Source: Phycisphaerae bacterium (lineage in GTDB: Bacteria > Planctomycetota > Phycisphaerae > UBA1845). Taken from it: a stretch of DNA of 50,095 bases. Below the pieces are notes generated by a model. It ran no database searches. It saw only the letters and a list, made by a program, of their open reading frames with translations, and had not been told where the DNA came from. Every line of letters begins with the position of its first letter. The stretch's first letter is position 1. Shown one piece after another: positions 10,756-40,855 of the stretch. Made by a program: the position numbers and the translations under genes. The DNA is taken from assembly GCA_029260075.1 (NCBI GenBank), contig JAJDDY010000040.1, positions 1-50,095 on the forward strand, in the 5' to 3' direction.

Positions 10756-10814
10756 CCTGAAAACACGGGCAAACTCGTGGTGGGGTGCGTGACAGAATCG
10801 GCGTCGGGCACTTT

Positions 10815-10885
10815 TCAGAGCACCGGGCGCAAGCCCGGTGACACGCTGACGCAGGGAGTCCGCAGGCTGGCGCCTGCGGCTCTGA
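10815..10885. repeat. Bipartite palindromic element, TCAGAG/CTCTGA ends, 71-bp form (family D)
   Basis: The element starts TCAGAG and ends CTCTGA (exact inverted ends). It contains two hairpins. The first is CACCGGGC-GCAA-GCCCGGTG (10821-10840), a perfect 8-bp stem with a GNRA loop. The second is GCAGGCTGGCGCCTGC (10862-10877). The second half matches one half of the 58-bp elements at 12095 and 40652. No coding function is visible. Confidence 0.75.
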
Positions 10886-11104
10886 CTCGGCGCACCCCTC
10901 CCGCCGGAAGTGTCAAAGACCCCGCGTGGTGCGTACGAAATTGCGAGCGCTCGCGAGGGCCACGAATGGTAGTTATTACCGGTCGGAAACGCAGATCCTG
11001 CTTGTGCTCGGATTATGCGTACGGATGCCGCGATGTACGCTTCACTATCGCGCCGGTGGCTGGGGCGGCACCTAATAGAAGGCCGACCCAATTTCACTTT
11101 TTCT

Positions 11105-11134
11105 TTGACTTTCGGTGCCGTTTTCGGTTACGAT
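11105..11134 (+). promoter_or_regulatory. Sigma70-type promoter
   Basis: TTGACT (11105-11110), an 18-base spacer and TACGAT (11129-11134), about 90 bases before the start at 11225. It is the best-matching pair upstream of that gene. Use in vivo is inferred. Confidence 0.5.
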
Positions 11135-11224
11135 CCGGCGTTAGGGTGCGCCTCCATGTCATTGGGGCCGCGCGAAAGGGGCAGTACAGCGAGGGTGAAC
11201 GACGTGCTTTCCGGAGGTATCACT

Positions 11225-12001
11225 ATGGTTACTTTGAGACGGCGCTTCTTCTTTGGTCTTGTTTGCGCCGGCATATTCGGCGCCACGACGCGATCATTCG
11301 CCGAAACCTCCATCAGCCTCTCACTAGCCAAACCTGGGCCGACGACCATTCCAGCGGGCGTCGATGTGACCGTCGAGGTCCGCGCGACGTTTGACACGCG
11401 TCTCTCAGCCGTATCGTTCACGCTTGCCGCGTCGGGCAGCGTGGAGACGTGCATGGCCGGACGGTCCGCATCGCCGACCACACCGGCCGGGTTGACCTAC
11501 GTATCACCGGTTTCTCAGATCCCGTTCGATGGTCAGCTACCGCATGATCTCGTTGCGGCGCCGCTGACGGAAGTGCTGTTTGACGGCGACTTCGATGGCG
11601 CACCCGGCGGGGCGACGGATGGCCTGCCTCCTGGCGTGGGCATGCTCATTGAAGAAATCACCATCCGTGCGCGGGGCGTAGGTCCGCTTAGCCTTTCGCT
11701 CACAAAGGTAACCGCCGCGCACACCACGAAGCCGCCGGGCGGATCTCTGTTTGATGTGATGAGCGTTGGTGCCGGAGTACTGGCACTCACAGTTGTACCC
11801 GGTCCCGGCGACGTCAACGGTGACGGACTGCTCACAAACGTCGATGTCGCCGCGGTTCCTTCTTGTATGCTTGGTCCTGGTGCCGGATCGCCCGGCGCGC
11901 CGTGCGACGTATTCGACGTGGATGCCGAAGGTGCAGACGGCGACGTAGACCTCAAGGACATGGCGGTGTTTATGCGCATGTTCACAACGCGATGCCCGTA
12001 A
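11225..12001 (+). CDS. Exported cohesin-like/dockerin-like protein
   Basis: A 258-residue protein. The ATG at 11225 follows GGAGGT seven bases upstream, the best ribosome site of this area. Residues 1-27 form a signal peptide (FFFGLVCAGIFGATTRSFAE). The middle (about 35-195) is a beta-rich segment beginning IPAGVDVTVEVRATF and containing VSFTLAASG, which resembles cohesin-type or carbohydrate-binding beta sandwiches. The C-terminus (about 197-258) is a degenerate dockerin: GDVNGDGLLTNVDVAA, then DVDAEGADGDVDLKDMAVF with the second Ca loop stretched. Such proteins are frequent in planctomycetes and are presumably surface or matrix components. The first domain assignment is tentative, the dockerin good. 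Confidence 0.8.
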   Translation: MVTLRRRFFFGLVCAGIFGATTRSFAETSISLSLAKPGPTTIPAGVDVTVEVRATFDTRLSAVSFTLAASGSVETCMAGRSASPTTPAGLTYVSPVSQIPFDGQLPHDLVAAPLTEVLFDGDFDGAPGGATDGLPPGVGMLIEEITIRARGVGPLSLSLTKVTAAHTTKPPGGSLFDVMSVGAGVLALTVVPGPGDVNGDGLLTNVDVAAVPSCMLGPGAGSPGAPCDVFDVDAEGADGDVDLKDMAVFMRMFTTRCP

Positions 12002-12094
12002 TGCTACGCGAGAAACGAGGCGTGTCGAAGCACTAGTGCAGGGTCACACGTCCTCTTGTGGGTCCTTCGGGTTGGGTCGTAGCTTCCCGCAGCA

Positions 12095-12152
12095 TCAGAG
12101 CCGCGAGCGCCAGCCTGCGGACTGGTCGCGCCGCTAGCGCGGTGGACTCTGA
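12095..12152. repeat. Bipartite palindromic element, 58-bp form (family D)
   Basis: Bounded by TCAGAG and CTCTGA. Inside are CCGCGAGCGCCAGCCTGCGG and CGCCGCTAGCGCGGTG, each able to fold. The reverse complement of 40652-40709 has the same length and matches at most positions. It sits between the gene ending at 12001 and the giant gene starting at 12300. The rest of that gap shows no gene. Confidence 0.8.
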
Positions 12153-12299
12153 CCGATGCGACAGTTGTTTCGAGCAGAAACATCCGTACAGCACTGGTTC
12201 GACGCACAGCTTCGTATGTACGCGGCGCATGGAACACCAGGCCGCAGCAAGGCTACGGATATTGCAAGACGCGACGGAAGCGATTCGGAGGTAAGGAAG

Positions 12300-15200
12300 A
12301 TGAAACGATTGTGGAACCGCGACAACCGCCGACGAGCCTTGCTGTCGTGTGCAGCTATCACGGTGGGCTGGCTGGCCACGCCCACCGCCGGTCTGGGTGC
12401 ATCGCCGTATCGAACTGCGGATCGTAAGAACGATCCATACGTGCGTTTCGCAAGCCCAGCGCGTCGAACGGTCAGCTACGCCAAGGGCGCTTCGCGAATT
12501 TTGCGTGATCGCGTTTCGCTTTCCCTCGTGAGCGCACCGATTACGACGAACCCCGGATTCTCGAACGGTGGTATTAGGACCAGCGCCGGCCTGGCTGGTC
12601 CGATCAACAATGCGGGTTTCCTTTGGGTCGACACCAGTGTCATGGGCGTCAGCGACGCCGTGAACAACACCGGAACGATTTGGGTCGGTGACGGGTCATC
12701 TGGCGGCGGCAACGTCGGTCTTGATCTTCAAAACGACCTCTCCCTTTCGGGCACCGGCGAGATTTACTTCCTCTCGACAGCAAGCGTCGTAGACAACCAG
12801 CCGTTCTTGCAGGTAACGGGCACGGTGACGAACGGCGTGGATCACCGCATTCATGGTGGCAACGGCCGAATCGTCGGCCCCGGTCGTTTTGTTAACGAGG
12901 GTCTGGTCGATGCAGACACACCACTGCGAACGATTCGAATTGAAACAGCCGAGCTGACCAACGTCGGTAATCTTTGGGCACGGTCCGGCAACCTGAGAAT
13001 CAGCGTAGCAGACTGGAGCAACGAAGGCGTGGTCCGGGTTGCGCAGGGCAGCCAATCGACGATCACGGGGACGCTATTCACGAACCAGATGACGGGCGTT
13101 GTTGAGAGCGTCGCCGGTTCGTCTCTGTCGATCGGAGCGAACGTAACCAACTTGGGGCGAATCTCCACGGATGCATCCGGGGACGTGTCGATTACCGGTA
13201 GCAACCGCCGGGTGACGAATCTCTTGAGCGGCGTGTTCGAAGCGGACGCAGGGGCTATACGATTCGCGTCGACCAACGGGCTCTTGCAAAACCTCGGAAC
13301 ACTTCGCGCGAACGCGGGTACGATCGAGTTTTCCAACGGGATGGATGCGTTCGGCGGCGATCTCATGCTGGAGAACGGTTCAACGGCGTCCGTTCTCGTG
13401 GGCACAACCACCATGACGCGCGTCCGCACGTCGCTGGATTCCGACAGTACGTTCGCGTCCGTGAACAACGGTCGTGGCGCCGCCACGCTTACCTTCAACG
13501 GCATCGTCGACAATGCGGGCGGTACGCTGCTTGCGAATTCCGACGCTGCGGGGGCAGCCACGTTCAATCTTTCGGGCGTGCTCGTTGATGATGGTGGCAC
13601 GCTGCGATCGGACGGCGGGGTCTTTGCCGCGAGCAATCTTGAGATTGAAGAGTCGGGCGTCCTTGCACTTCAACTTCGCAACAGTGGTACGATGAGTCTT
13701 ACGAACGTGGCGTCCACCGCCGGGACCATCGCCGTGGACTGGACGGGCACCGGTGGGGCGCTGACGTTCAACAACTACCGATCGGAAGGCGCGACCACAT
13801 TGTTGAATCTGGCCGGTTGGTCAGGCGACGGTGGTTCGTTGACCATCTCCGGCGGTACGAATCTGGAAACCGCCGGTTTCATCGCACTCGCTTCCGGCGC
13901 GGTGCTCAGCGTTACCGGCGCCGGGTCACGCCTGGTCTTGCCGACCGCCACGAGTTCGGCGTCCACTTCGGTGGTCGACTTGGTTAGTGGGGGTCGCCTT
14001 GCCATTCCGGACTTGGCCGTTGGCGGCGATCTGCGGCTTCGCGGCGGTCGGGTCGAAGGGAATGTACATCTTGCGTCGACCGGCACGCTTGCGATCACCA
14101 GCGGTTCCAACACCATCGACGGCGATCTCTCCTGGGATGGTGACCAAGCAATATCGATCAGCGCGAACAGTGTCAATTTGTCCATTGGCGGCGAAGTGAA
14201 CGTCGCGCCCGGTTCGTCGATGGAGCTTCGCGCGAGCAGTGCCCGTTTCTTCGGCGCCGGGAACGTGACCAATAGCGGATTGATTCTCGGTGGCCCGACC
14301 GGCACGAACCAGAGTACGTTCTTCGATCTCAGCCTGACCAACAACGCGGACGGTATCGTCCGGGCGTTCCAAAATGGCGCCGCCACGGACACGCTTTTCC
14401 GAATTCGCGGTAGCGTCAACAACGCCGGGCTCATGGAAGCCGACGGGGCGACGCTTTACTTCGAGGGCGCCAGTGTCATCAACAGTGGAACGTTGCGTAC
14501 TACCGACAACGCGGCGCGAAGTCGCCTGATCTTCGTTGGCGGCTCAAGCGTTACGGACCAGGGGGGCGTAACGGACATTAACGGGGCTCAGAGTCGGTTG
14601 GAGGTTTCGGGCGGTTCCAATGTCGACCTCGGAATGTTGACCCTTGCTGACGGGGCTAGCGGCTTCGTTTCCGGCGCCGGTTCGGTGCTGACTTCTAACA
14701 GCGTCGTCGAAATCGGCGCCTCAGCAGCGTTCGACGTGGCCAGCAGCTCGCGCCTCAACGCAGCAGGTTTGTTGGTGAATGGTGGCCTATCGGTTCGAAG
14801 CAGCGCTGTCATCAACGCAGCCGACTTGTCGTTATCCGGTGACTTGACGATTCAAAGCAGCGCGGTGGTCAACGCTGCGGTCGTCGTTAACCCAACCGGC
14901 AGCGTAATCGCCAACTCCAGCGTGGGCACTTTTAACGGTGCCATGTCCATTCTTCGCGGGGCGACCGAAGCCGGGCTGTTGTCGATTCAGGCCAACAGCG
15001 CTCGAGTGAACGGAACCGGGACGATCACCAACAGCGGTCTCATTCGGGGCGGCGGCACATCGAACAACACAAGCACCTATCTCAATCTGAACCTGATCAA
15101 CAACGCCGACGGCGTGGTCCGTGCTTTTCGAAACGGTACACCCACAAACACGTTGTTCCGGTTGACCGGAACGATCGACAACGCCGGCATCATGGAAGCC

Positions 15201-18200
15201 GACGGCGCCAGGCTCTACTTTGAAGGGGCCAACGTCACCAACCGCGGCACGTTGCGTACGGTGGCGGGCGACGTGGCGAGCAGCCTCCAGTTCTTCGCTG
15301 GTGCTAGGGTCGTTGACGACGGCGGTACAACACAGATTGGTGGCGCGCTCGATCGGCTTGAGGTTTCCGGTGGGTCGGATGTTCATCTTGGCACGCTCAC
15401 ACTTGCTAATGGAGCGAGTGGATTTGTCGAGACGGCGGGTTCTTTCCTTCGCGCCGACAACGTCGTGCAGATCGGAGAAGCATCCAGTTTTCGGGTTTCA
15501 TCGAGCGGGCGGTTCGATACACCTGGCATCAGCTTGGACGGTCTCCTGAACCTTCAGAGCTCGGGCGTCGTCGAGGCGCCGGTCACCGTCAATCCAACAG
15601 GGCAAATCTTGGCCAACTCCAGCATCGGATCGCTAAATGGCGATGTGACCGTGCTCCGGGACGGTGGCGGTGCGGGAAGGATTTCCTTGGTCTCCAACAG
15701 CGCGCGGCTCAATGGTATCGGCTTGGTGACCAACAGCGGCTTGATCGAGGGCGGAGGCACGTCTAACAATACCAGCACATACTTCGACCTAAGCCTCACG
15801 AACAACGCAGACGGCGTCGTCCGTGCTTTTCGCAACGGAACGGCGACCAACACGTTCTTCCAAATTACCAATGACGTTCAGAACAGCGGCGTGATGGAGG
15901 CGGTTGGCGCCAATCTTTACTTCAATACCGCGACGGGGCAGAACGCCGGTTTGCTCCGCGCCGTCGACAACGCGGTCGCCAGCAAGCTCATTTTCGTCGG
16001 CGGTACACGACTCACGGATGCTGGTGGTGCAACCGGCATAGATGGCGCGCTAAGCCGGCTTGAGGTTTCCGGGGCGGCCAACGTCGAACTCGGAGCGCTC
16101 AGTTTCACCAATGGCGGTGGCGGGTTCATCAGCGGCGCCGGGAGCGTTGTGACGGCCAGGAACGTCGTGCCGTTGGGCGAAGCGTCTCAGTTCAGCGTTG
16201 TCTCGTCGGGTCGGCTGAACGCGGTCGGGGTTGATGTACACGGCGACCTCATCCTTCAGTCGAACGGCGTGGTGGACGCAGCCACAACAGTCAGCCCCAC
16301 CGGGCAAATTATCGCGAACTCGTCTACCGGGACGCTGAGCGGCAGCGTGACGGTAGACCGCGATGCCACGGACACCGGGCGGATATCTCTGGTCACCAAC
16401 AGCGCGCGATTGAACGGCAGTGCGGCTGTCACGAACAACGGATTGATTGAGGGCGGAGGTACGTCTAACAACGTCAGCACGCACTTTAACCTAAGCTTGA
16501 CCAACGAAGCCAACGGCGTCGTCCGGGCGTTCCGCAACGGGACGCCCACCAACACGTTCTTTCAGATCACGGAGACGGTTCAGAACAACGGTTTGATGGA
16601 GGCGGTCGGCGCCAATTTGTATTTCAATACCGCTAACCTTACCAACGCCGGCGTGCTCCGTACCGTCGACGACGTGGCCGTCAGCAAGCTGATTTTCGTC
16701 GGCGGGTCGCGTGTGACCGACGCCGGTGGAATGACGCAGATCGATGGGGCGCTCAATCGGCTGGAGGTGTCCGGCACGTCCAACGTCAATCTCGGCGCAC
16801 TCAGTTTCACCAACGGCGGCGGGGGTTTCGTCTCAGGCGCCGGCAGTGTGGTGGCTGCGACCAACGTCGTTCCCATCAGCGAAACGTCGCGATTCTCCGT
16901 CGTCAGCAGTGGACGGTTTGACGCGCCGGGCATCGATCTTGGCGGCGAACTCGTACTGCAATCCAGCACCGTGGTAAACGCACCCGTCACCGTGCTATCG
17001 ACCGGTCGGATCACCGCCAATTCCGGATTGACTTCGCTCAACGACGATGTCACCGTGCTCAATGACGGTGGTGGAGGGATCGGACATGTGTCTGTCGTAG
17101 CGAGCAGTGCACGCATTGCGGGCACGGGAACGATTTTCAATCACGGTGTTGTCGAAGGCGGAACCGACCGAAACAATGGGCTTACTCGAATAGACAACGA
17201 TATCGTCAACGAATCTGACGGCATGGTCCGAGCCTTTGCCGATGCGTCGGCCACGTCCAACAACTTCCAAATTTTTGGCGACGTGACGAACCGTGGCACG
17301 CTCCAAGCCGACGCGGCTACGCTTAGCTTGTCGAGCTCATTCGTGGACAACGATGGCGGAACGCTTTCGGCGATCAACGGCGGTCGAGTCCTGGTAACCG
17401 GATCGTTCGTTGGTGGATCGTCGGGCAGCGATGCGACGATTGACGGTGATGCCAGCCTGCTCGACGTGGCTACGGGCTCGCTCGTCGGGTTGGACTCGCT
17501 GAACCTCATCAATGGCGGAGACGCACGGGTCCGCGACACGAACAGCGTGTTGGCCATCGCATCATCGTTGAACGTCGGCGTAGACAGCGTGGCCACTGCG
17601 GGGATTCGCGGCCGGCTTCAGGCTACGGACTTTAATATCGACGGTACGCTCGCCGGGCAAGGCGGTACTGTACTGGGCGACGTGCATATCGGGGCGACGG
17701 GTAGCATTCTCGCCACGACGAGCACGACAACCATTGACGGCGACGTGACGACAACGTCGTCGGGCAGTCTGATTAGTGTGACCGGGTCCGGAACACAACT
17801 GCGGGTCGAGGGTGCAATCAACAACGCAGCCGACGCGACAATGTCGGTGAACACGAACTCGACGTCCATCGCTGGACCGGGCACGATCACCAACGCTGGC
17901 TTGATCGAGGGCGGCGGGCTCAACAACAACAACACGTCGACGATTTCCAAGCCGTTGATCAACAACGGTGAGGTGGTCGCGCGAAGACTGGGTACGTCGA
18001 CGGGAACAACGCTGCAATTCAACGCCGCCAATATCATGAACTCCGGCTCGATGACGGCTTCGGGCGTTCAGCTTCTGATCACCGGATCCACCGTCGACAA
18101 CAGCGGTCTATTCCGTGCTGAGAATGATAGCCTGTTCACGTTGCAGAGCAGTGCCGTCGTCAACAACTTGGGCGGCGGGGTCGAGGTGGACGGCGATGGC

Positions 18201-19793: not shown

Positions 19794-19848
19794 TCTGATG
19801 GTTGGTTTTATTGATCGAACAGAGCGTACCTATGACGGTGATGATGCC

Positions 19849-22149: not shown

Positions 22150-22246
22150 CGCTGCTGCTGTCTTATTGAACGAATGTGACCGATTGCCAACGTGCCGCAA
22201 GTTGCCCGGCATGACATGAATGATGGGCGTGCGCTGGAGCCGAGAG

Positions 22247-26410: not shown

Positions 26411-26453
26411 CTGCGGGCGTGGATGCCGACATCCCGCTCATGGGAGAGACGCC

Positions 26454-26867: not shown

Positions 26868-26883
26868 CGGGTTCGTCCGATAC

Positions 26884-26968
26884 GAGCCGCGACCGTAAGG
26901 GAGTGATTTCAAACCGTCACGCCCGGAATTCAAACGTCCGCTTCTTTACGGGCGCGGCTCGGTAAACT
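26884..26968. repeat. Inverted pair of family-B repeats (GAGCCGCGACCGTAAGGGAG)
   Basis: One copy at 26884-26903 (GAGCCGCGACCGTAAGGGAG). A second, inverted and diverged copy lies at about 26944-26968 (reverse complement CCGAGCCGCGCCCGTAA). A similar inverted pair is at 37570-37633. When translated in the right frame the core gives LPYGRGS, which explains spurious peptides here. Confidence 0.7.
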
Positions 26969-27056
26969 CGTCATTCGATGTGTAACGGAGCGCGAGGCCC
27001 TTCCAAAACAGAACAACTTGTGCTACCGGTGCGTTTTGCACGATAACAAGCGGTAG

Positions 27057-31568: not shown

Positions 31569-32560
31569 GGCTCACCAACGCCGCCGGTTGCAACCGGGAC
31601 CAAAACACGACGCAAGGCGCCGTCGTGATCTACGCATCGCTCGACCGCACATTTTCCGAGCCGATTCTTCTTGAGTTTGAGCGGGAAACCGGGATCGACG
31701 TGCAGGTCGTGTACGACACTGAGTCGACCAAGAGCGTCGGGTTGGCCAACCGCATTCGCGCCGAGCGCCACCGCCCACGCTGCGACGTGTTCTGGAACAA
31801 CGAAATCCTCAACACACTCTTGCTCGAACGTTCCGGTCTGCTGCGCGCCACGCATCCCGCCAACGCCGCAGCCTATCCCGCGAACGTGCGCGATGCGGAC
31901 GGCATGTGGTATGGCTTCGCCGCTCGAGCCCGCGTGTTGATCGTGAATACCGAGAAGCTCGGCGATCGATCGCCGCCCAAGTCGATGTACGATCTGCTTG
32001 ATAAGCAGTGGCGCGGCGAAGTGGGCATCGCCAAACCTGTCGCCGGCACCACGGCCACGCACGTCGCCTGCTTGTTCGCGGTGCTGGGTCCGGACAAAGC
32101 GAAGGATTACCTGGACGGACTGAAGAGCAACGGCGTACATATCGAGCCCGGCAACAAGGGGTGCGCCGAAGCCGTGGGAACCGGTCGACTTACCATCGCT
32201 TGGACCGACACGGACGACGCCATCATCGAGGTCGATGCGGGCAAACCGGTCACTATTGTTTATCCCGACAGCGAACCCGGTGGACTTGGTACGCTCTTCC
32301 TGCCCAACACACTTGTCGCCGTGCGCGACGCGCCCAACACCGATGCGGCTGATAAACTGATCGACTACTTACTGTCACCTGATGTCGAAACGCGATTGGC
32401 TTCCGGTCGCTCGGCGCAGATTCCACTTGGTCGCAATTGCTCAACACAGCCGCGTGTTAGGGGTCCGGGCGAGATCGAGTCGATGCACGTCGATTTCGAT
32501 ACGGCCGTCGGACATTGGGCCGAAGCCCAGCAATACATCCGTTCGCGGTTTCTTCGATAG
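31514..32560 (+). CDS. ABC substrate-binding lipoprotein, iron(III) type (FbpA-like)
   Basis: 348 residues from the ATG at 31514, which lies inside the end of the permease gene. An upstream ATG at 31496 has no better ribosome site. A signal sequence ends in NAAGC, a normal lipobox. The mature part starts VVIYASLDRTFSEPILLEFE and continues TGIDVQVVYDTE, typical of FbpA/AfuA-type periplasmic iron-binding proteins, with CDVFWNNE and YGFAARARVLIVNTEKLG in their usual places. The C-lobe has VGTGRLTIAWTDTDDA and a final LLSPDVETRLASG. It captures the ligand outside the inner membrane and hands it to the permease. The cargo could be ferric iron or another oxyanion-bound metal; this cannot be settled by eye. 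Confidence 0.9.
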   Translation: MVTPLSRSSVYAIALCAIGLTNAAGCNRDQNTTQGAVVIYASLDRTFSEPILLEFERETGIDVQVVYDTESTKSVGLANRIRAERHRPRCDVFWNNEILNTLLLERSGLLRATHPANAAAYPANVRDADGMWYGFAARARVLIVNTEKLGDRSPPKSMYDLLDKQWRGEVGIAKPVAGTTATHVACLFAVLGPDKAKDYLDGLKSNGVHIEPGNKGCAEAVGTGRLTIAWTDTDDAIIEVDAGKPVTIVYPDSEPGGLGTLFLPNTLVAVRDAPNTDAADKLIDYLLSPDVETRLASGRSAQIPLGRNCSTQPRVRGPGEIESMHVDFDTAVGHWAEAQQYIRSRFLR

Positions 32561-32622
32561 CAACCCGCTCGAATCAATCTCGAATCCGATGGGAGTGCGC
32601 AGGAGAATCGGCGGGAACGGTA

Positions 32623-32881
32623 TAGCTGGTGCGTGAATCCCTTCTCGCACGCATCGTGGTTATAGCTAGCGCGTGACTCCTTTCTCGCACCTATCGTGGT
32701 TACCGCTGGTGCGTGAATCCTTTCTCGCACCCACACTCGCGGGAATCCCTTCCCTTTGGTTGCCAGAGTCATGGAATGCAGGATAGGAATCCTTCTTGAT
32801 CCGAGGGACGAGATGGGAATCTCGTCCCAGCATTATGGCTGGTGCGTGACTCCTTTCTCGCACCTATCGTGGTTACCGTTT
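32623..32881. repeat. 40-bp repeat cluster (GTGCGTGA...TCTCGCAC)
   Basis: Three direct copies with exact 40-bp spacing start at 32623, 32663 and 32703, and a fourth lies at 32836. Each has GCTGGTGCGTGA(A/C)TCC(C/T)TTCTCGCAC followed by a conserved ATCGTGGTTA spacer in three of them. GTGCGTGA and TCTCGCAC can pair with one mismatch, so each unit forms a hairpin. The cluster fills most of the 380-base gap between the substrate-binding protein gene and the aminopeptidase gene. It is not a CRISPR: units abut and the spacer parts are alike. Confidence 0.8.
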
Positions 32882-32941
32882 GACTCCACACCTGCCGATC
32901 CCGATAATGGGTATACGGAGTTAGGGCCGGAGCCGATCGTT

Positions 32942-34150
32942 ATGCCATTGCGAACATCCACAAGACCACGACGTCCCGATGGCGTCGCCATGCTGATGCT
33001 AGTCGCGTCGTTCGCCGGTTGCAGTGTGGACTTCGACTACTTACTACCGCAGGCCACCGGGCAGCTACAGCTACTTCGTCGCAGTGTGCCACTCGCCAGC
33101 GCCATCGAATCGCCGGACCTGAGCGAGGACCAAATTGCCAAGCTCACGCTCATTCGCAATGCGCGGACCTACGCACGCGATGTGATTGGCCTCGACGTTG
33201 TCGACAGCTACGAAACGTTTTATGACTCACACGGTGAGGCCGTGGCGTTCAATGTGTCCGCGTCCCGCAAAGATGCGTTCGATCCGCGAACTTGGCGCTT
33301 TCCGATCGTGGGCGAAGTCCCCTACCTGGGTTTCTTCGACCGAGCGGATGCCGACCTACAAATCGCAGAGTTGGCGGACGACGGGCTTGACGTGTTCATG
33401 TACGAGATCGATGCGTACAACTCGTTGGGCGCCATACCCAACCCGGTGCTGTCGCCGATGTTGAAGCGTTCCGAATCCTCGCTCGCAGAAACCGTATTTC
33501 ACGAACTGCTTCACAGCACGGTCTGGCGGACGAATGATACGGCCTTCAGTGAGAGCTTGGCGACGTTCTACGGCCGAGCGGGCGCGATCGCATTCTTTGA
33601 AAACAGCTATCCGGACGAACCCGAACGTGTGACGGAATCATTCCAACGGTTCGAGGATACCGACCGCTACAACGAATCGATGCTCATGTTGCTCGACGAT
33701 CTCGACGTTGTGTATGCGTCTGAAATGTCGGTCGAAGAGAAGCTCGCAACCCGCGAGTCCGTTCACGCCGCCGGAATCGAACGCTTCAACGAAGAGGTGC
33801 TTCCACTCATGAACCGCCCGGAGCGTTTTGCGTGGGTAGCGGGGCTCCCGATCAACAACGCGTTCTTGCTGGGCATTCGCCGATACAATCTCGAAATCGG
33901 TTTGTTTCAGTCGGTGTTCGATGCGACCGGAAGGGATTGGGCCGTGTCGATCACCGTGTTCCGAGCTTCCGCAGCAAGCGATGACCCGTACGAATACCTG
34001 CGCAATTGGCTTGGCGTGGACGATACAGCCGCCAAGCGTTCCGCCGTCGCCGCGAAACTGAGTCCAACGTTCGCGCAGAGTGCCAAAGAAATGGCACCGC
34101 ATAGCTCGTGCGCTCGCTGTCGTAGTACGACGTTCATCCCCACGCGTTAG
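32942..34150 (+). CDS. Predicted lipoprotein aminopeptidase (PF10023/DUF2265-like zinc peptidase)
   Basis: 402 residues from the ATG at 32942. Longer in-frame starts would translate the hairpin repeats upstream. A signal sequence (VAMLMLVASFAGC, Cys 27) suggests a lipoprotein. The core carries ETVFHELLHSTVW with the zinc motif HELLH at 187-191, and DTAFSESLATFYG with the third ligand Glu near 204, the layout of the predicted aminopeptidase family. Preceding RTYARDVIGLDVVDSYETFY and FPIVGEVPYLGFF also match that family. It likely trims peptides in the periplasm. Substrate and direct partners are unknown, and it is convergent with the propeller gene that follows. Confidence 0.88.
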   Translation: MPLRTSTRPRRPDGVAMLMLVASFAGCSVDFDYLLPQATGQLQLLRRSVPLASAIESPDLSEDQIAKLTLIRNARTYARDVIGLDVVDSYETFYDSHGEAVAFNVSASRKDAFDPRTWRFPIVGEVPYLGFFDRADADLQIAELADDGLDVFMYEIDAYNSLGAIPNPVLSPMLKRSESSLAETVFHELLHSTVWRTNDTAFSESLATFYGRAGAIAFFENSYPDEPERVTESFQRFEDTDRYNESMLMLLDDLDVVYASEMSVEEKLATRESVHAAGIERFNEEVLPLMNRPERFAWVAGLPINNAFLLGIRRYNLEIGLFQSVFDATGRDWAVSITVFRASAASDDPYEYLRNWLGVDDTAAKRSAVAAKLSPTFAQSAKEMAPHSSCARCRSTTFIPTR

Positions 34151-34179
34151 AGCGTCTGCACCGCCCGGACCGAGTGGTT

Positions 34180-34209
34180 GGCCCATGGCTTTAGCCGTGG
34201 GGGAGTCGA
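34180..34209. repeat. Palindromic repeat, family E (CCCATGGCT..AGCCGTGGG), between convergent genes
   Basis: A 9-bp stem (one T-G pair) with a two-base apex, followed by GGAGTCGA. It differs at one base in 30 from the reverse complement of 40497-40526. Lying between stop codons at 34150 and 34243, it may also end transcription from both sides, but there is no T tract. Confidence 0.75.
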
Positions 34210-34242
34210 ATCGACGCGGGATTCGCGCCCAGCGATTCGTCG

Positions 34243-37200
34243 CTACTCAGTCTTCTTGAACATGATAGCCGGCACATCTTCCTTGCGAACCAGGTCGTTG
34301 AACGCGGGGACGTCTTTGTCGACGATTTTCTTCAGCGCATCCAGTTGTTCTTGAAGCTGCGCGTTGAGGTCGTCGAACACGGCCGACGACTGATCCGTCG
34401 GGGCGTAGTTGGCTCGCGATATGACGCCGGACAATGCGGCGATTTTGTTGTTGAGTTTGATCGGGAAGTTGAGCGGATCCTGGCCGCTCTTCGATTTCGT
34501 CTGGATCAATTCCTCTTCAATCAGGGTCAACTTTTGGACGAGCTCAGTCGCAGCCTCTTCCACGGCTTTGTTCTCGTTGTATTCCTTGATGCGTTTCCCA
34601 GCCGCTTCGGCTTGCTCTTTAATGCTGCGAATCTGAATGATGGCGTCGTGCGCCTTCGACAGTGCGTCGCGAATCTTCAGTTGCAGCGTGAACCGTGCAT
34701 CGAAGTCGTTCGAGGACGACGTCGTTCGCGGATCGATCACGATTTCGAGCGGTTGCGTGGTGGACTCATCGCCAACGGTCAAGCGTATTTCGTATGAGCC
34801 GGGCGGCGCGGCTGGTCCGCGTGTGCTGCCGCCCCACATGACCGCGCTCTTAAGTTCCGTCGCGTCCTCGTAGCGCATGTTCCACTCGAACTCATTCATA
34901 CCCTTGTCGGCTGTGCAGTTCTTGCTACTCGGCGCGAAGAAAAACGAACGACGCGATTCCGCTTCCTCCTTGGCGTCGGGGTCCTTCGTGGTAAAGCTCT
35001 TGACGACCTCGCCCTTGCTGTCAAGGAAATCCAACGTCAGCTTGTCTTCGGGTTCTTCTTGAAGGCCATAGCGCACCGTGACGGTTCTGTCGATTCCGGA
35101 AACCACCGGTCGCGGCGCGAACAGATGCATGTCGGACGTAGCTACTTCGTCGTTGAGCTGATGCAACAACGTCAAGTCATCGAGTATCCAAAAAGAACGC
35201 CCCTGCGTCGCAGCCACAAGATCGTTGTTCTTCACGACCATATCGGTGATCGGCACGATGGGCAGGTTCATCTGCAGTGGTTGCCAGTGCCCACCATCGT
35301 CAAACGAAACGTACGCCCCGGTCTCCGTGCCTGCATACAACAAACCCCTGCGGTTGGGATCTTCGCGAACGACGCGCACAAACGCTTCGCGTGGAATACC
35401 CTGCGTAAGCAGCGACCACGTCACGCCGTAGTCCGTCGTCTTGAAAATGTATGGTGAGAAGTCGTCCATTTTGTACGCGTTGACCGCGAGGTAGCAGGTG
35501 GCTGGATCGTGCTTGGAAATCTCGATCATGCTCACCGTGGCCCACTTGGGCAGATCGAGCGGCGTGACGTTGGTCCAATCATCGCCGCCGTTGCGGGTGA
35601 TGTGTACCAACCCGTCATCGCTACCCGCCCAGATCACACCCTTCTCGTGGGGCGACTCCGCCACCGAAAAGATCGTGCAATAGTACTCAACGCTCGTGTT
35701 GTCGTGCGTGATCGGCCCGCCCGACGGGCCCTGTTTGCTCTTGTCGTTCGTGGTCAGGTCCGGGCTGATGGCGGTCCAACTCTGCCCTTCGTTCGTCGTC
35801 TTAAACAACACATTGCCCGCCGCATAGATCACGTTCACATCGTGCGGTGAGAAAAGGATCGGGAATGTCCATTGGAATCGGTACTTGAGCGGCCCCGCGC
35901 CCCAGCCCATCGGGTTCTCAGGCCACACGCTGATGTTGCGAAACTGCTGCGTGGTCCGATCGTACCGCGTCATGAATCCGCCATAGCTTCCGGCGTAGAC
36001 GATGTTGTGATCGTCCGGATGCGGTGCGATGTATCCGCTCTCGCCGCCGCCGACGGAGTAGAACTGAGCGCGTGGCCCGGGTCGAGCGCGACTCGAAATG
36101 GATAGCGTACTGTTGTCCTGCTGTGCGCCATACACTCGATACGGAAACTGATTGTCGGTGATCACGTGATAGAACTGCGCCGTAGGCTGCATGTCCTGCC
36201 GCGACCAACTCTTGCCGCCATTGAACGAAACGTTGGCCCCGCCGTCGTTGGCGTTGACCATTCGCTGGTTATCGTTCGGGGCGATCCACAGATCGTGGTT
36301 ATCGCCGTGCGGAACACGGATCGACGAAAACGTCTTCCCGCCGTCGGTCGACTTACCGAACCGCGTGTTCAACACATACACCGTGTCGGCGTTCTGCGTG
36401 TCGGCGAAGATATGCGTGTAGTACCACGCCCGCTGCCGCCAACCGCGATCCTCGTTGACCCGCTTCCAACGCTTGCCGCCGTTTTCCGAGCGGAAGATTC
36501 CGCCCTTGTCGGATTCGACGATCGCCCAGACACGGCTAGGATTCACCGGCGAAACCGCGACGCCGATCCGACCCTTGATGCCTTCGGGCAGACCCTTGGT
36601 CAGCTCGACCCATGTATCGCCGCCGTCGGTCGTCTTGTAAATCCCACTGCCCGGTCCGCCGCTCTCTAGTGAATAGGGCGTGCGCCGAACCTGCCATGTG
36701 GCTGCATAGATGATGCGCGGGTTGGTGGGGTCCATGGACAAATCGACCGCACCGGTGAACTCGTCGACGAACAAAACGCGGGCCCACCGTTTGCCGCCGT
36801 CGGTGGAGCGGAACACACCGCGCTGACTGCTCGGTCCGAAGACGTGACCCAACGCCGCGACGTACACGATATTCGGATCGTCAGGATGAACACGCACGCG
36901 GCCAATCTGCCGCGAGTCTTCCAAACCGATGTGCGTCCATGTCTTTCCGGCGTCGGTCGATTTGTATACACCGTCGCCGTGCGAAAAGTTACCCCGCACG
37001 CACGATTCACCCATGCCGACGTATACGACGTTGGGGTTGCTGTTTGCGACCGCAATCGCTCCGACCGAACCGGTCTTGAAGAACTTGTCCGTCATCGGCG
37101 ACCACGAACTACCCCCGTCTTCCGTCTTCCACACCCCGCCGCCGGTTCCGCCCATGTAATAAACGAGCGGCTGACTCGGTACGCCGGCCACCGCAACGGA

Positions 37201-37428
37201 TCGACCGCCGCGACTTGGACCGATGCTGCGCCATTTCATCTGACTATAGAGGTTTGCGTCAACGCCCTTGCTCGGCACAGCCTTCGCCGCCGCATGCGTG
37301 GCCCCGGCCGAACAACAGACGGCCGCAACGACGATCATCCGAAACATCGACGGACCATAGCGTGATCGACAAGAACGTGGTTGACGAAGCACTGAACGAC
37401 CAATACTCGACTGAGACAAACTCTTCAT
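34243..37428 (-). CDS. Exported BNR/VPS10-like beta-propeller protein
   Basis: 1061 residues from the ATG at 37428, preceded by CGAGGGAA. A signal peptide is likely around MFRMIVVAAVCCSAGATHAA. Residues about 60-700 contain repeated Asp-box/BNR motifs: VWKTEDGGSSW, VYKSTDAGKTW, VFRSTDGGKRW, IYKTTDGGDTW, IFRSENGGKRW, LFKTTNEGQSW. This fits the two-propeller build of sortilin/VPS10-like and exo-glycosidase-like families. The last ~300 residues include an Ig-like strand set (GSYEIRLTVGDESTTQPLEI) and a helical, probably coiled-coil region. Databases often call such proteins glycosyl hydrolases, but I see no sialidase Arg triad or other catalytic signature. A secreted binding protein is as likely. 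It is transcribed alone. Confidence 0.88.
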   Translation of the reverse strand: MKSLSQSSIGRSVLRQPRSCRSRYGPSMFRMIVVAAVCCSAGATHAAAKAVPSKGVDANLYSQMKWRSIGPSRGGRSVAVAGVPSQPLVYYMGGTGGGVWKTEDGGSSWSPMTDKFFKTGSVGAIAVANSNPNVVYVGMGESCVRGNFSHGDGVYKSTDAGKTWTHIGLEDSRQIGRVRVHPDDPNIVYVAALGHVFGPSSQRGVFRSTDGGKRWARVLFVDEFTGAVDLSMDPTNPRIIYAATWQVRRTPYSLESGGPGSGIYKTTDGGDTWVELTKGLPEGIKGRIGVAVSPVNPSRVWAIVESDKGGIFRSENGGKRWKRVNEDRGWRQRAWYYTHIFADTQNADTVYVLNTRFGKSTDGGKTFSSIRVPHGDNHDLWIAPNDNQRMVNANDGGANVSFNGGKSWSRQDMQPTAQFYHVITDNQFPYRVYGAQQDNSTLSISSRARPGPRAQFYSVGGGESGYIAPHPDDHNIVYAGSYGGFMTRYDRTTQQFRNISVWPENPMGWGAGPLKYRFQWTFPILFSPHDVNVIYAAGNVLFKTTNEGQSWTAISPDLTTNDKSKQGPSGGPITHDNTSVEYYCTIFSVAESPHEKGVIWAGSDDGLVHITRNGGDDWTNVTPLDLPKWATVSMIEISKHDPATCYLAVNAYKMDDFSPYIFKTTDYGVTWSLLTQGIPREAFVRVVREDPNRRGLLYAGTETGAYVSFDDGGHWQPLQMNLPIVPITDMVVKNNDLVAATQGRSFWILDDLTLLHQLNDEVATSDMHLFAPRPVVSGIDRTVTVRYGLQEEPEDKLTLDFLDSKGEVVKSFTTKDPDAKEEAESRRSFFFAPSSKNCTADKGMNEFEWNMRYEDATELKSAVMWGGSTRGPAAPPGSYEIRLTVGDESTTQPLEIVIDPRTTSSSNDFDARFTLQLKIRDALSKAHDAIIQIRSIKEQAEAAGKRIKEYNENKAVEEAATELVQKLTLIEEELIQTKSKSGQDPLNFPIKLNNKIAALSGVISRANYAPTDQSSAVFDDLNAQLQEQLDALKKIVDKDVPAFNDLVRKEDVPAIMFKKTE

Positions 37429-37498
37429 CGTATTCCCTCGCACGTTGGACAGATCAGGATACCTTCCCGCCCGTTGAAAAGGTGTGCAGCGCAAAAGC

Positions 37499-37702
37499 GT
37501 GGCCCCGGCTTCCAGCCGGTGATCCCATTAGCGGGGCCACGAACGTCACTAGGAAGTCTCCTTCAGAGACGCGCCCGTAAGCAAGCGGTCCGGGTTCAAC
37601 TTCGCAAACCGCTCCCTTACAGTCGCGGCTCGGTTCGAAACAACCCTTCCAAAACACGCCATTACAAGTGTGGCACGGCTTCCAGCCGGTAACCCATCAG
37701 CG
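37499..37702. repeat. Palindrome cluster: two family-A copies flanking an inverted family-B pair
   Basis: Family A cores at 37499-37534 (CCCCGGCTTCCAGCCGGTGA) and 37665-37702 (CACGGCTTCCAGCCGGTAAC) lie in the same orientation. Between them is an inverted pair of family B: CGCGCCCGTAAGCAAGCGG at about 37569-37587 and CCGCTCCCTTACAGTCGCGG at 37609-37628. This occupies the 5' side of the propeller gene. No gene is visible. Confidence 0.7.
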
Positions 37703-38005
37703 CCTATCCGCTCTTGACGAGACCCCAGACCGTTGGGACCGACGAACAGCCCGCCACGCAAGAATACGTGCTTCAATCCATAGGCTGTGACGAGCGCACC
37801 GGCGGCATCAACTATGACCGCCCCTCGTGGGCATGTCGATAGGCCACCTGCAAGGAACTGTCGGCGACCGATAACTACGCCATTAGCTAGCAATTGGTTG
37901 AAGATGTGCAAACCGCGGTAATCGAGTCTGGAACGGCCGAACCCGTTGGTCCGTGCATTATGGCCCAACCCGGTAGATGGGGCTTTCATCCCCATCTACA
38001 GGACT
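37703..38005. other. Intergenic stretch with a strong hairpin at 37972-37998
   Basis: GTAGATGGGG, loop CTTTCAT, CCCCATCTAC: a perfect 10-bp stem just after the stop side of the gene ending at 38006, so it could end that transcript. The rest of the stretch has an open minus-strand frame running into the palindromes. It has no ribosome site or domain and is not accepted as a gene. Confidence 0.55.
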
Positions 38006-38851
38006 TCAGGGCAACAGTTCGTCTTGTCGTCTCAGGACTTGAGACGTTGGATCCTCAAGCTGTATCGTGGACATACTCATGCGAATTGCCCTTTCATTCC
38101 CCTCGATCCGTGACAACTCGACAAGGCGGCGCATCCCGCTGAAAGGGTGCTCGCCATCTACCGAGACAGGCGACTCTAGTTCCTCGGATATCCGCGGGCG
38201 ATGATACTGGTCAAAGAATACGGTTCCGTTCTCGGCACGTAAGTTTTTGATCGATGTTGTCCACGGCTCAAACTCCCGAACGTGGAAGCGGAGATTGCCA
38301 TCCCCCTCGTCCGAGATCGTGTAGAGGACGTTGCCGTCATCGTCGATCCATGTCCCGACGAAGGAGACGTACCCATTCTCAGGTACCATCCTTCGCTTGC
38401 TCAAAACTGGATCTGGCGGCAGATCATGGGCACCAATCACTTCTTGCCATCGTGCGATCATGTTCGGGCGATCCCACACCACGACCATGTCAATCGCTGC
38501 CGGTCCATATCCTTGCATTGTTACATGTGGATGATCCGGAAACCTGTACAGCAACTCCTGCCAGAGACGCTTGGACTCCAGCGATGGGACCGAGATGCTC
38601 CTCAGGACAAATTCTCGACGCTCGAAGTAGCCGAGTCGCACAAGGGCATCGCGGTGGGCATCGTATCTCTCGATAAACTCGGATTGTCGCGGATCGCGTG
38701 CGCCAGTTTTCGCGATCTTCTCCCTCGCGGTGCCCATCTGTGAAACATGGAAGCGAATCGCTGCCGAGTCACTCGTTAGCCACCATAGGCCGAGACATGA
38801 CAAGAGAACCAAGCCAACAATGAAGCTCAATCTTACTGCACGGTTCAGCAT
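38006..38851 (-). CDS. Hypothetical membrane-anchored protein
   Basis: 281 residues. One N-terminal membrane segment (LSFIVGLVLLSCLGLWWLT, about 8-26) is followed by a soluble domain, so the protein is probably tethered and faces the periplasm. No family was recognised. Visible features are a helical first part (about 35-100, with RDPRQSEFIERYDAHRDALV), and a beta-rich second half with SFVGTWIDDDGNVLYTIS and RFHVREFEPWTTSIK, which reads like a small lipocalin- or DUF-type barrel. The gene stands alone between the palindrome-rich gap and the aldehyde dehydrogenase gene on the same strand, 175 bases downstream of the latter's stop. Codon use looks ordinary for the window. Confidence 0.7.
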   Translation of the reverse strand: MLNRAVRLSFIVGLVLLSCLGLWWLTSDSAAIRFHVSQMGTAREKIAKTGARDPRQSEFIERYDAHRDALVRLGYFERREFVLRSISVPSLESKRLWQELLYRFPDHPHVTMQGYGPAAIDMVVVWDRPNMIARWQEVIGAHDLPPDPVLSKRRMVPENGYVSFVGTWIDDDGNVLYTISDEGDGNLRFHVREFEPWTTSIKNLRAENGTVFFDQYHRPRISEELESPVSVDGEHPFSGMRRLVELSRIEGNERAIRMSMSTIQLEDPTSQVLRRQDELLP

Positions 38852-39026
38852 GATTCCCGCGATTCAAGCGTTGGCCATTGTAAAATCCGCTCTTTCCCAA
38901 TGGGTACGGCCAAGTAGAGCGGGTTATTGTGTCGCCCGCGAAGAGTTCATCCCAACTCGCTAGTACGAGCACGGACACCTCATCCTTCAAAACAACTGAA
39001 GAACGGGAAACGGACGAGACACGATG

Positions 39027-40466
39027 TCAAAGCTCCGCAGAACGAATCACTAGCAGTTTCTCGATCTGCATATCTTCCATCGTATACGGAATACCACCAA
39101 TGCCGAGACCAGACTCTTTCAGCCCGGCGAAGGGCATCCAGTCTACGCGGAAGGCTGTGTGGTCGTTCACCATCACCGCGGCCGCATCGAGACGTTTCGC
39201 CGTGCGCAGCGCTGTATCCATATCTCGCGTGAAGACGGACGATTGAAACGCGAACGGCAAACTGTTCGCCCGCTCAATGGCTTCGTCCAGTTCATCGAAC
39301 GGGTAGACACAGGCCACGGGGCCGAAGATTTCCTGTGTGCTGACGCGGGCGTCGGCCGGTGGATTAAGCAGCACGGTCGGCGAATAGCAAGTGTCCAACA
39401 CCATAGACCCACCGCACAACAGCTCTGCGCCACCGGACACCGCCTCTTTCACCCACTCATCAACGCGGTTCACCTCGGCACTACGAATGAGTGGACCGAC
39501 GTCGGTTTCTTTTAGTGTGGGATCACCCACACGTAGCGACTTGGCTTCGACCGCAAGGCGATCAGCCAGGTCACGCGCTATGCTGCTATGAGCGAATATC
39601 CGTTGCACGGAAACGCAGACCTGCCCGGCGTGGTAGAACGCGCCTTTGGTCATCAGGGGAAGGGCAGAGGTCACATCGGCGTCGGCGGCGACGATGACAG
39701 GGGCCGCGCCACCGTGCTCCATCGAACAACGTGCACCCGGCGCCAACTTCGACCGAAGCATCCATCCCACCCGACCGCTGCCAATGAACGTGAAGAACGC
39801 CACGCGCGGGTCGGCGACCATGGCGCCCGAAACGTTGCGGTCTGTCGGCACCATCGCTTGACACCACGACTCGGGCAGACCGGCTTCGCGAAGAATGGAT
39901 ACGAACCGCATGCACGAAAGGGGCGTCGCCTCTGCGGGTTTGACGATGACCGGGCAACCGACAGCCACGGCCGGCGCCACCTGATGTACGATGAGGTTCA
40001 GTGGGTGATTGAACGCACTAAACGCCAGCACGACGCCGATGGGTTCGTGCATCGTCATGGCCAATCGACCGGACGACGCGGCGTTGATTCCCATGGGAAT
40101 CATGGTCCCGCTTTGCGTGCGCAGGGTCTCTACACAAATCTTTATGCAGTCGATCGCGCGATCCGTTTCGACGATGGAATCGACCAGCGGTTTTCCACCC
40201 TCCATCGCAGCCGCTTCGGCCAGCTCGCTACGAGATTTCTTCATGATGGCGGCGGTGCGGTCGAGGATTGCGATTCGTTCAGCTGGCGCAAGCCATGCAT
40301 CGCGATCGCGAAACAAACCGTCCGCAGTTTCGAGCGCGCGCTCCGCCGCATCCGAACCGGCACGCTCGACGGTCGCAATCGTCGACCCGTCGAAAGGGGC
40401 TGTTACCGTAAGATGCTTGCCAGCGGATTGGGCACCGTGGATCATGAGCGGAACGTGATTGGTCAT
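39027..40466 (-). CDS. NAD(P)-dependent aldehyde dehydrogenase
   Basis: 479 residues, normal length for the ALDH superfamily. AAGGGAAG lies before the ATG at 40466. The catalytic set is intact: Asn 153 (SAFNHP), Lys 176 (VIVKPAEATP, cofactor binding), Glu 250 (SMEHGGAAP) and Cys 284 (HAGQVCVSVQR). The MEHGG version replaces the commoner LELGG, as in phosphonoacetaldehyde, lactaldehyde and glyceraldehyde-3-phosphate (non-phosphorylating) type enzymes. It oxidises an aldehyde to the acid in the cytoplasm. The exact substrate is not determined. The gene is monocistronic; upstream lie a family-E palindrome and a family-D element. Confidence 0.95.
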   Translation of the reverse strand: MTNHVPLMIHGAQSAGKHLTVTAPFDGSTIATVERAGSDAAERALETADGLFRDRDAWLAPAERIAILDRTAAIMKKSRSELAEAAAMEGGKPLVDSIVETDRAIDCIKICVETLRTQSGTMIPMGINAASSGRLAMTMHEPIGVVLAFSAFNHPLNLIVHQVAPAVAVGCPVIVKPAEATPLSCMRFVSILREAGLPESWCQAMVPTDRNVSGAMVADPRVAFFTFIGSGRVGWMLRSKLAPGARCSMEHGGAAPVIVAADADVTSALPLMTKGAFYHAGQVCVSVQRIFAHSSIARDLADRLAVEAKSLRVGDPTLKETDVGPLIRSAEVNRVDEWVKEAVSGGAELLCGGSMVLDTCYSPTVLLNPPADARVSTQEIFGPVACVYPFDELDEAIERANSLPFAFQSSVFTRDMDTALRTAKRLDAAAVMVNDHTAFRVDWMPFAGLKESGLGIGGIPYTMEDMQIEKLLVIRSAEL

Positions 40467-40496
40467 TGCGTACTTCCCTTACAAAGCTACGGACAG

Positions 40497-40526
40497 TCGA
40501 CTCCCCCACGGCTAGAGCCATGGGCC
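40497..40526. repeat. Palindromic repeat, family E (second copy)
   Basis: CCCACGGCT AG AGCCATGGG, 9-bp stem; the reverse complement matches 34180-34209 at 29 of 30 bases. It lies 31 bases upstream of the aldehyde dehydrogenase start, in a position where it could not be a terminator of that gene. Confidence 0.75.
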
Positions 40527-40631
40527 ACCCAGTGTGTGCGAAAACGTCCGGGGCGTCGCTCCTTGTTGGAGCGAAACCACATCACAAGTGCAGCGTCACA
40601 CCTTAATGTTCGGGTTGTCGCCGCCCGCACC

Positions 40632-40709
40632 ACCGGCGCCAGGCGCGCCGGTCAGAGCCCTCCGCGCTAGCGGTGGGACCGGTCCGCGGGCTGGCGCCCA
40701 CGGCTCTGA
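40632..40709. repeat. Hairpin plus 58-bp bipartite element (family D)
   Basis: ACCGGCGC-CAGGC-GCGCCGGT (40632-40652) is a perfect 8-bp hairpin that abuts a 58-bp element (40652-40709) starting TCAGAGCC and ending GGCTCTGA. The element is the inverted copy of 12095-12152. The remainder of the 389-base gap between 40466 and 40856 shows no gene. Confidence 0.8.
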
Positions 40710-40855
40710 TGCCGTCGCAAACCCGTAGATTTAGCTGTGACGGAGCACTAGAGTACAACACTCAGACTGTTCTACGTCACGAGACGCTCGGGTGGAGCAC
40801 TGCTCGCTCAAGGATAACCGAAAGATATGCCCATCAGAAGCGGACGTGACAAACA

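What the first reader, a model, noticed from the sequence alone, without database searches (positions are those of the whole stretch)
10815..40709. Bipartite palindromic element with exact TCAGAG/CTCTGA ends, three copies
Copies at 10815-10885 (71 bp), 12095-12152 (58 bp) and 40652-40709 (58 bp, inverted) share inverted ends and one hairpin half, while the second hairpin varies (one form has a GNRA loop). Fixed ends plus a swappable stem are what one expects of a short mobile REP/BIME-type element moved in trans, perhaps by a RAYT transposase, rather than of terminators. I see no target duplication.
Basis: partly seen in the sequence, partly recalled or inferred. Interest (0 to 1): 0.7.

Follow-up and report, generated by a model that had tools for sequence, protein, structure and literature searches.

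The report
Palindromic repeat pairs riding inside mini-transposons
The three short palindromes are paired copies of a repeat that belongs to a single-strand DNA transposase, but in this planctomycete genome most copies lie inside two unrelated kinds of miniature transposon that appear to have carried them around the chromosome.

Summary
In detail: all three copies are exactly where stated. The genome holds 59 exact TCAGAG-N38-66-CTCTGA pairs (reversed control 4), built from a 28-bp repeat: TCAGAGC, 7-bp hairpin with a GNNA loop, GAC (157 strict matches, control 0).

The RAYT guess is supported. A 175-aa HUH/Y1 transposase gene with the motifs and CnGA foot of TnpA class 3 lies among seven copies of this repeat, and two relatives show the same linkage.

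TCAGAG is not the end of what moved. Of 77 inverted pairs found in the sequence held, 39 lie inside shells with IS630-type ends (CTAGTGC...GTCAC) and 24 inside shells with ends GGGTGCGTGACA and 9-bp target duplications. An IS630-family element and a Tn5-like IS4-family transposase with matching ends are in the same genome. Fourteen contig ends stop at the 140-bp shell and pair 7-to-7 by identical 9-bp flanks.

Best reading: REPINs of a class-3 RAYT, captured as passengers by two families of non-autonomous DDE transposons. REPs of other RAYTs occupy the same shells. I rate it a new variant of a known kind. Seen in passing: RAYT genes lying in frame inside alaS and valS.

The parts
10783..10922 (-). 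Mini-transposon M9a, 140 bp, ends GGGTGCGTGACAGA / GGGTCTTTGACACT, containing the 71-bp palindrome pair
   Evidence: BLAST copy of the 140-bp element, 97% identity; ends and flanks
10774..10782 (.). Target duplication, left copy CTCGTGGTG
   Evidence: 8 of 9 identical to the right copy
10923..10931 (.). Target duplication, right copy CGCGTGGTG
   Evidence: 8 of 9 identical to the left copy
10815..10842 (+). REP unit, loop GCAA
10858..10885 (-). REP unit, loop GCCA; forms the 71-bp pair with 10815-10842
12033..12152 (+). Truncated mini-transposon M4: IS630-type end CTAGTGCAGGGTCACAC, left arm and 58-bp pair; right arm absent
12095..12122 (+). REP unit
12125..12152 (-). REP unit; forms the 58-bp pair with 12095-12122
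40585..40751 (-). Mini-transposon M4b, 167 bp, ends CTAGTGCTCCGTCACAGC and CAAGTGCAGCGTCACACC (CTAG mutated to CAAG), containing the 58-bp pair
40652..40679 (+). REP unit, loop GCTA
40682..40709 (-). REP unit, loop GCCA; forms the 58-bp pair with 40652-40679

Best explanation
The palindrome is a REPIN: an inverted pair of 28-bp REPs (T-CAGA-GC foot, 7-bp hairpin with GNNA loop, GAC) belonging to a class-3-like RAYT coded elsewhere in the genome. Here it sits as a passenger in the middle of two unrelated families of non-autonomous DDE transposon. M9 (140-183 bp with this REPIN) has the ends of a Tn5-like IS4-family element and duplicates 9 bp of target. M4 (about 166-187 bp) has the ends of a resident IS630-family element and lies at CTAG. 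Shown: anatomy, shell ends, 9-bp duplications, transposase genes behind matching ends, RAYT-REP linkage, and REP pairs without shells in relatives. Inferred: that the RAYT made and first spread the REPs, that shells captured a REPIN at least twice, that the DDE transposases rather than the RAYT made the present copies, and that the REPIN is not needed for those moves.
For: Shell ends on both sides of 63 of 77 inverted pairs. 9-bp duplications: 14 of 19 internal M9 copies match at 8-9 of 9, none of 462 mismatched comparisons reaches 8; 14 contig ends pair 7-to-7 at 9 of 9, the other 42 combinations at most 5. IS630-family element with M4 ends; Tn5-like transposase behind an M9 end. RAYT amid seven REP units; same linkage in G069 and G049. 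No shell round 6 of 6 checked pairs in G090 and 2 of 2 in G069. Whole 140-bp elements, shell included, are identical in 15 of 19 hits.
Against: No empty site was found. The far end of the Tn5-like element lies beyond a contig end, so no complete autonomous M9 element was seen. Three of 19 internal copies show no 9-bp duplication as aligned. The M4 core is better conserved than its arms (91% against 58% and 76%, arms partly measured over unrelated flank), which could mean the core matters. Five relatives with REP units (G054, G070, G077, G089, G090) gave no RAYT match.
Confidence: 0.82

Rival explanations
1. The REPIN is a working part of the mini-transposons (for example a cruciform, transcription barrier or host-factor site that helps them move or be tolerated), not a passenger.
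For: M9 shells contain palindromes of three REP families and M4 shells of two; of 34 places with an M9 end, only 2 lack any REP trace; the M4 core is better conserved than the arms.
Against: Within 42 M4 cores the hairpins drift: one pair is broken in 20 of 42 and I saw no double changes. Two M9 elements have a deletion through the palindrome (L093, L094). The arm comparison is confounded by unrelated flank.
Confidence: 0.1
2. One reading: TCAGAG...CTCTGA is itself the mobile unit, moved in trans by the RAYT; the outer sequence is incidental.
For: RAYT amid the same repeats; pairs without shells in G090 and G069; a 78-bp pair inside the mnmG frame of G090.
Against: Core-shell junctions are constant in aligned copies and flanks become unrelated only beyond the shell ends; 9-bp duplications lie at the shell ends.
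Confidence: 0.06
3. Ordinary transcription terminators that happen to look alike.
For: GC-rich hairpins, and the three window copies appear to lie between genes (my reading of the ORF list).
Against: No T-run follows the hairpins; identical copies with 9-bp duplications; a pair lies inside a coding frame in a relative. The terminator scan tool was not run.
Confidence: 0.02

Closest known systems
REPINs with RAYTs (Bertels & Rainey 2011, PMC3116915; passages seen)
   Same: Inverted REP doublets, compensatory changes in stems, high copy number, RAYT gene flanked by the same REP.
   Different: Most copies here lie inside DDE-type shells with terminal inverted repeats and, for M9, 9-bp duplications; in the passages seen MITEs appear as a separate class used for comparison.
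Class 3 TnpA-Y1 and its hairpins (Quentin et al. 2018, PMC6006769; Class 3 section and passages read)
   Same: Planctomycete, 175 aa (class entry 178), NHVH, WT, Y----Q, hairpins with 5' foot CAGA (CnGA); CCGA/CGGA in G049.
   Different: That paper calls the class-3 hairpins atypical; here they are regular 7-bp stems in inverted pairs, mostly inside mini-transposons.
IS630-derived MITEs such as Correia and RUP elements (named in PMC2817692, passages seen)
   Same: Short, no coding capacity, IS630-type ends, resident IS630 partner.
   Different: The centre is a REP pair of another element class; other M4 shells carry a different REP family (R4).
Tn5/IS4-type non-autonomous elements
   Same: 9-bp duplication and a Tn5-like transposase (Tnp_DNA_bind, DDE_Tnp_1, Dimer_Tnp_Tn5) behind an M9 end; the 9-bp habit of Tn5 is recalled.
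   Different: Shells carry palindromes of three REP families (R1, R2, R4).
IS elements inserted into REPs, such as ISPpu9 (PMC8450116, search listing only)
   Same: REPs and IS elements in physical association.
   Different: There the IS lies in the REP; here the REP pair lies in the transposon.

Membership tests
REPIN | Two inverted REPs able to form hairpins | tested here: met
   157 units; 77 inverted pairs; covariation
REPIN | Same REP flanks a RAYT gene in the genome | tested here: met
   seven units round C52:1627-2154
REPIN | Predominantly outside genes | tested here: inconclusive
   Only the three window copies looked at, from the ORF list; one pair in a relative is inside mnmG
REPIN | Moved by its RAYT | not testable with these tools
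   No experiment; five relatives with units gave no RAYT match
Class 3 TnpA-Y1 (PMC6006769) | NHVH, W[TA] and Y----Q motifs, about 178 aa | tested here: met
   P0001 has SNHVHVVV, VWTRHG, YVTECQ, 175 aa, compared by eye
Class 3 TnpA-Y1 (PMC6006769) | Flanking hairpins with a 5' CnGA foot | tested here: met
   CAGA; CCGA and CGGA in G049
Class 3 TnpA-Y1 (PMC6006769) | Match to that paper's class-3 profile | not tested
   Profile not available
RAYT as modelled by NCBIfam REP_Tyr_transpos | Score above the curated cut-off | tested here: not met
   22.5 bits against 80; IS200 model 33.3 against 55; not filed there. Pfam Y1_Tnp 38.7 against 23 is met
IS630-type MITE (M4) | Terminal inverted repeats shared with a resident IS630 element | tested here: met
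   CTAGTGC...GTCAC ends; L144:867-2093
IS630-type MITE (M4) | TA duplication within CTAG | tested here: inconclusive
   CTAG at both ends of many copies; no empty site; the target rule is recalled
Tn5-like MITE (M9) | 9-bp target duplication | tested here: met
Tn5-like MITE (M9) | Complete autonomous element with both M9 ends | tested here: inconclusive
   Transposase and one end in L151; the other end is beyond the contig end

The most novel reading that the evidence does not exclude
Shell and core form a two-stage mobility system: RAYTs write REPINs into DDE mini-transposons again and again, and the shells then multiply the RAYTs' substrates. M9 shells here carry REPs of three RAYT-linked families (R1, R2, R4) and M4 shells of two (R1, R4), so capture would be recurrent and perhaps selected rather than an accident.
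Probability: 0.3. Interest if true: 0.75.

Novelty: new variant of a known kind. Interest (0 to 1): 0.6.

Why it matters
REP copy number is usually read as the work of a RAYT. Here the same REP pair is carried by ordinary mini-transposons of two families, and shelled pairs occur in four genera, so REP abundance need not measure RAYT activity. The genome also offers a test system: twelve M9a insertions, eight of them identical, with a Tn5-like transposase and an apparently intact RAYT of class 3, whose describers wrote that further experiments are needed to determine its origin and behaviour (PMC6006769).

Tried and rejected
Terminators as origin: rejected (no T-run after the hairpins, duplications, a pair in a coding frame of a relative); the terminator scan tool was not run. 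TCAGAG as the true end: rejected once outer flanks were aligned. L147 as partner of M9 because of a GTGTCCGTGACA stretch: rejected, its inverted repeat runs on to other ends. tRNA and Rfam scans of the window gave no tRNA and one family, the 16S fragment. Empty sites by joining flanks: the matches that span the joint are the same places in overlapping loci, or relatives of the flank that end there; no clean case. One M9b copy (L098) lies in a word found uninterrupted in L001, by eye only. One search used a pattern one base too long and found nothing; repeated. The first duplication script mis-set some right ends and lost contig-end copies; redone. Of the three failures, L073 gives 9 of 9 when shifted by one base; L077 and L085 stay failures. 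The shells of relatives (L179, L180, L184) show no 9-bp duplication (4, 1 and 4 of 9), and L180's ends are weak (3 mismatches each). Double changes within M4 cores were looked for and not seen.

Paper searches listed nothing that I recognised as REP pairs inside DDE mini-transposons; of the 54 papers only 10 were listed. Searches listed nothing on RAYTs inside tRNA-ligase genes. Only an open-access library was searched. Seen: the Class 3 section and passages of PMC6006769; passages of PMC3116915, PMC3733652 and PMC2817692; others as listings or starts of abstracts.
Full report
1. The observation. The three copies are exactly as given. Each is two inverted 28-bp units: TCAGAGC, a 7-bp arm, a 4-base loop, the other arm, GAC. 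Between the units lie 15 bases (71-bp form) or 2 bases (58-bp form). The 58-bp form is 7+7+4+7+3+2+3+7+4+7+7 with nothing left over, so on paper it can fold as a cross in which the outer TCAGAGC/GCTCTGA also pair. In the 4.92-Mb genome the pair pattern occurs 59 times per strand (reversed control 4) and the single unit 81+76 times (control 0).

2. The unit is structured. On 55 distinct units picked by hand, 94.5% of stem cells pair, 98 cells have both sides changed (29.8 after shuffling) and the covariation score is 0.664 against 0.153 (sd 0.022), 0 of 500 shuffles as high. On the 46 distinct own-genome units matching the pattern in held sequence, with no hand selection, 297 of 322 stem cells pair and 25 of 46 units are fully paired, against a mean of 8.1 and a maximum of 18 when arms are dealt anew.

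3. A RAYT goes with it. Of six Y1_Tnp matches in the genome, the one at C52:1627-2154 codes for 175 aa (Pfam Y1_Tnp 1.2e-9) and has seven exact units within 400 bp on its two sides. It scores below the cut-offs of NCBIfam's REP_Tyr_transpos and IS200 models. Among 114 genomes of the order, own included, 54 have a relative of the protein at E 0.001 or better, and 26 have the strict single unit, several of them through one or two chance-like matches. G069 (62% identity) has three units within 350 bp of its gene. G049 (71% identity) has none of the strict form, but its gene lies among the same hairpins with the foot changed to CCGA or CGGA. This fits class 3 of Quentin et al. (PMC6006769: Class 3 section read; table row seen): NHVH, W[TA], Y----Q, Planctomycetes, hairpins with a 5' CnGA foot. 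Against a strict link: G054, G070, G077, G089 and G090 have units but no match.

4. TCAGAG is not the end. Aligned flanks show two kinds of shell. M4 (58-bp core) runs from CTAGTGC..GTCAC to GTGAC...GCACTAG, and beyond that sequences are unrelated. M9 has ends like GGGTGCGTGACAGA and carries the 71-bp core (M9a, 140 bp), a core with a 40-base spacer (M9b, mostly 181 bp) or a decayed core with a 25-26-base spacer (M9c, 182-183 bp). Of 77 inverted pairs found in held sequence, 39 have both M4 ends, 24 both M9 ends (one, L085, with a doubtful right end), 9 one M4 end, 2 one M9-like end (L012, L072), and 3 are RAYT arrays. One search printed 71 entries; one stands for 14 contig-end copies, counted here as 7 insertions. 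The same loose test calls 'both' for 17 (M4) and 32 (M9) of 5000 random windows, some of which may hold real shells. Badly decayed pairs (for example L070, L079, L088) are not among the 77, and a few hits were not fetched.

5. Target duplications. Of 19 internal own-genome M9 copies with this REPIN and both flanks, 14 match at 8-9 of 9 bases, 2 at 7 and 3 fail; none of 462 mismatched comparisons reaches 8. Fourteen of the 19 M9a hits lie at contig ends. The 9 bases next to these give 7 left and 7 right flanks that pair one-to-one at 9 of 9, while the other 42 combinations reach at most 5. So 19 hits are 12 insertions and the assembly broke at this element; 15 of the 19 hits, that is 8 of the 12 insertions, are 100% identical over 137-140 bp. 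The window copy has CTCGTGGTG/CGCGTGGTG, 8 of 9.

6. Transposases for the shells. L144:867-2093 is a 1227-bp IS630-family element with two overlapping ORFs (DDE_3 6.6e-20; IS630 model above cut-off) and ends CTAGTGCTTTGTCACAGCT as in M4. In L151 a 485-aa transposase with Tnp_DNA_bind, Dimer_Tnp_Tn5 and DDE_Tnp_1 (IS4 model 362 bits against 160) lies behind an M9-type end; its other end is beyond the contig end. That Tn5-like elements duplicate 9 bp and IS630 elements choose CTAG/TA is recalled.

7. Other REPs in the same shells. Three further Y1 genes lie beside other hairpin repeats: R2 GCCCTGAAAGGGC at C86:275039, R3 CACCGGCTTCCAGCCGGTG at C88:21884, R4 GAGCCGCGACCGTNAGG at C54:129300. R2 is in M9e (L095, 333 bp, 8 of 9 duplication) and beside the Tn5-like transposase. 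R4 is in an M9 element with a perfect duplication (L096) and in M4 elements of 110-161 bp. The 39 hits to the M9 end at 0-1 mismatch I grouped by hand into 34 places: 30 carry recognisable R1, R2 or R4 palindromes, 2 have a deletion through them (L093, L094), and 2 (C4:25951 and window 44103) show neither a second end nor a REP.

8. Relatives. A scan of the collection of 84,980 species found the pair pattern in 7 stretches: 6 from Planctomycetota MAGs and 1 from a contig labelled Rokubacteria; records of the window's own genome may be left out there. In the order it is in 4 of 114 genomes. Checked pairs without shell ends: 6 of 6 in G090, 2 of 2 in G069, 2 of 3 in G077. Shelled pairs like the window's: G054 98/140 identical to M9a, G070 122/183 to M9b, G061 147/205 to M4b with flanks. 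With the window's own, four genera. In G090 a 78-bp pair adds 26 codons in frame to mnmG, in a stretch where solved MnmG chain 3cp2_A has about 42 fewer residues.

9. Reading. REPs exist beside RAYTs and without shells in relatives, so I take the REPIN as independent of the shells and captured by them. Within shells the junctions are constant and the duplications lie at the shell ends. Within 42 M4 cores the hairpins drift (one pair broken in 20 of 42, no double change seen), which speaks for a passenger; the core's higher conservation (91% against 58% and 76% for arms, partly measured over unrelated flank) speaks the other way. Odds: captured passenger 0.82, working part 0.10, RAYT-only 0.06, terminators 0.02.

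10. Seen on the way, perhaps worth more than the finding. The R4-linked RAYT of this genome lies in frame inside alaS (alaS model 619.9 bits against 457, with the Y1 match between its pieces), its REPs read as SRDRKEA repeats. In 7 of the 29 other-genome RAYT loci examined (L114-L142) the Y1 domain is in frame inside alanine--tRNA ligase, and in 1 inside valine--tRNA ligase. The motif used to find the frames missed some loci, so these are minimum counts. Another Y1 gene lies in frame in purH.

Noticed in passing
L021:352-3192 (G000:C54, Y1 match at 129300); L125, L129, L133, L136, L137, L138, L139: A RAYT (Y1_Tnp) lies in frame inside alanine--tRNA ligase in this genome and in 7 of 29 RAYT loci of other genomes of the order, with REPs translated as linker repeats (SRDRKEA, PLPHGRGS). 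Six of the 8 cases break the ligase at about the same place (profile 253-266); L133 and L137 lie elsewhere. Paper searches listed nothing on it.
   Followed up: partly
L130:1-3468 (G030): Y1_Tnp domain in frame inside valine--tRNA ligase, with REP-derived linkers.
   Followed up: partly
L087:859-3219 (G000:C88:20858-23218): A different Y1 gene in frame inside purH (AICARFT/IMPCHase), beside CACCGGCTTCCAGCCGGTG repeats. Pfam Y1_Tnp 22.2 bits, just under its cut-off of 23; 25.7.
   Followed up: partly
L176:1627-1704 (G090): A 78-bp REP pair inserted in frame in mnmG, adding 26 codons.
   Followed up: partly
ends of G000 contigs C5, C11, C24, C49, C51, C54, C68, C72, C76, C80, C82, C83, C84, C85: The assembly broke at the 140-bp element; the 9-bp flanks predict seven contig joins.
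   Followed up: yes
L165, L167, L088:2015-2184: M4 elements with the left arm of one subfamily and the core plus right arm of another, meeting at TCAGAG: possible recombination or template switch at the REP.
   Followed up: no
window 26884-26960, 37609-37631: R4-type REP words in the window.
   Followed up: no
window 10186-10204, 37503-37521, 45601-45619, 49992-50010: R3-type hairpin words CACCGGCTTCCAGCCGGTG, one perfect and three diverged.
   Followed up: no
window 12021-12036: Another M4-type end abuts the element at 12033, sharing its CTAG: tandem or nested insertion.
   Followed up: no
L103:6029-6104: The only REP pair from a record not labelled Planctomycetota lies 12 bases from the end of a 6.1-kb contig of a Rokubacteria MAG; stray binning and transfer were not told apart.
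   Followed up: no
window 1-729: Fragment of a 16S rRNA gene on the minus strand, cut by the window start.
   Followed up: no
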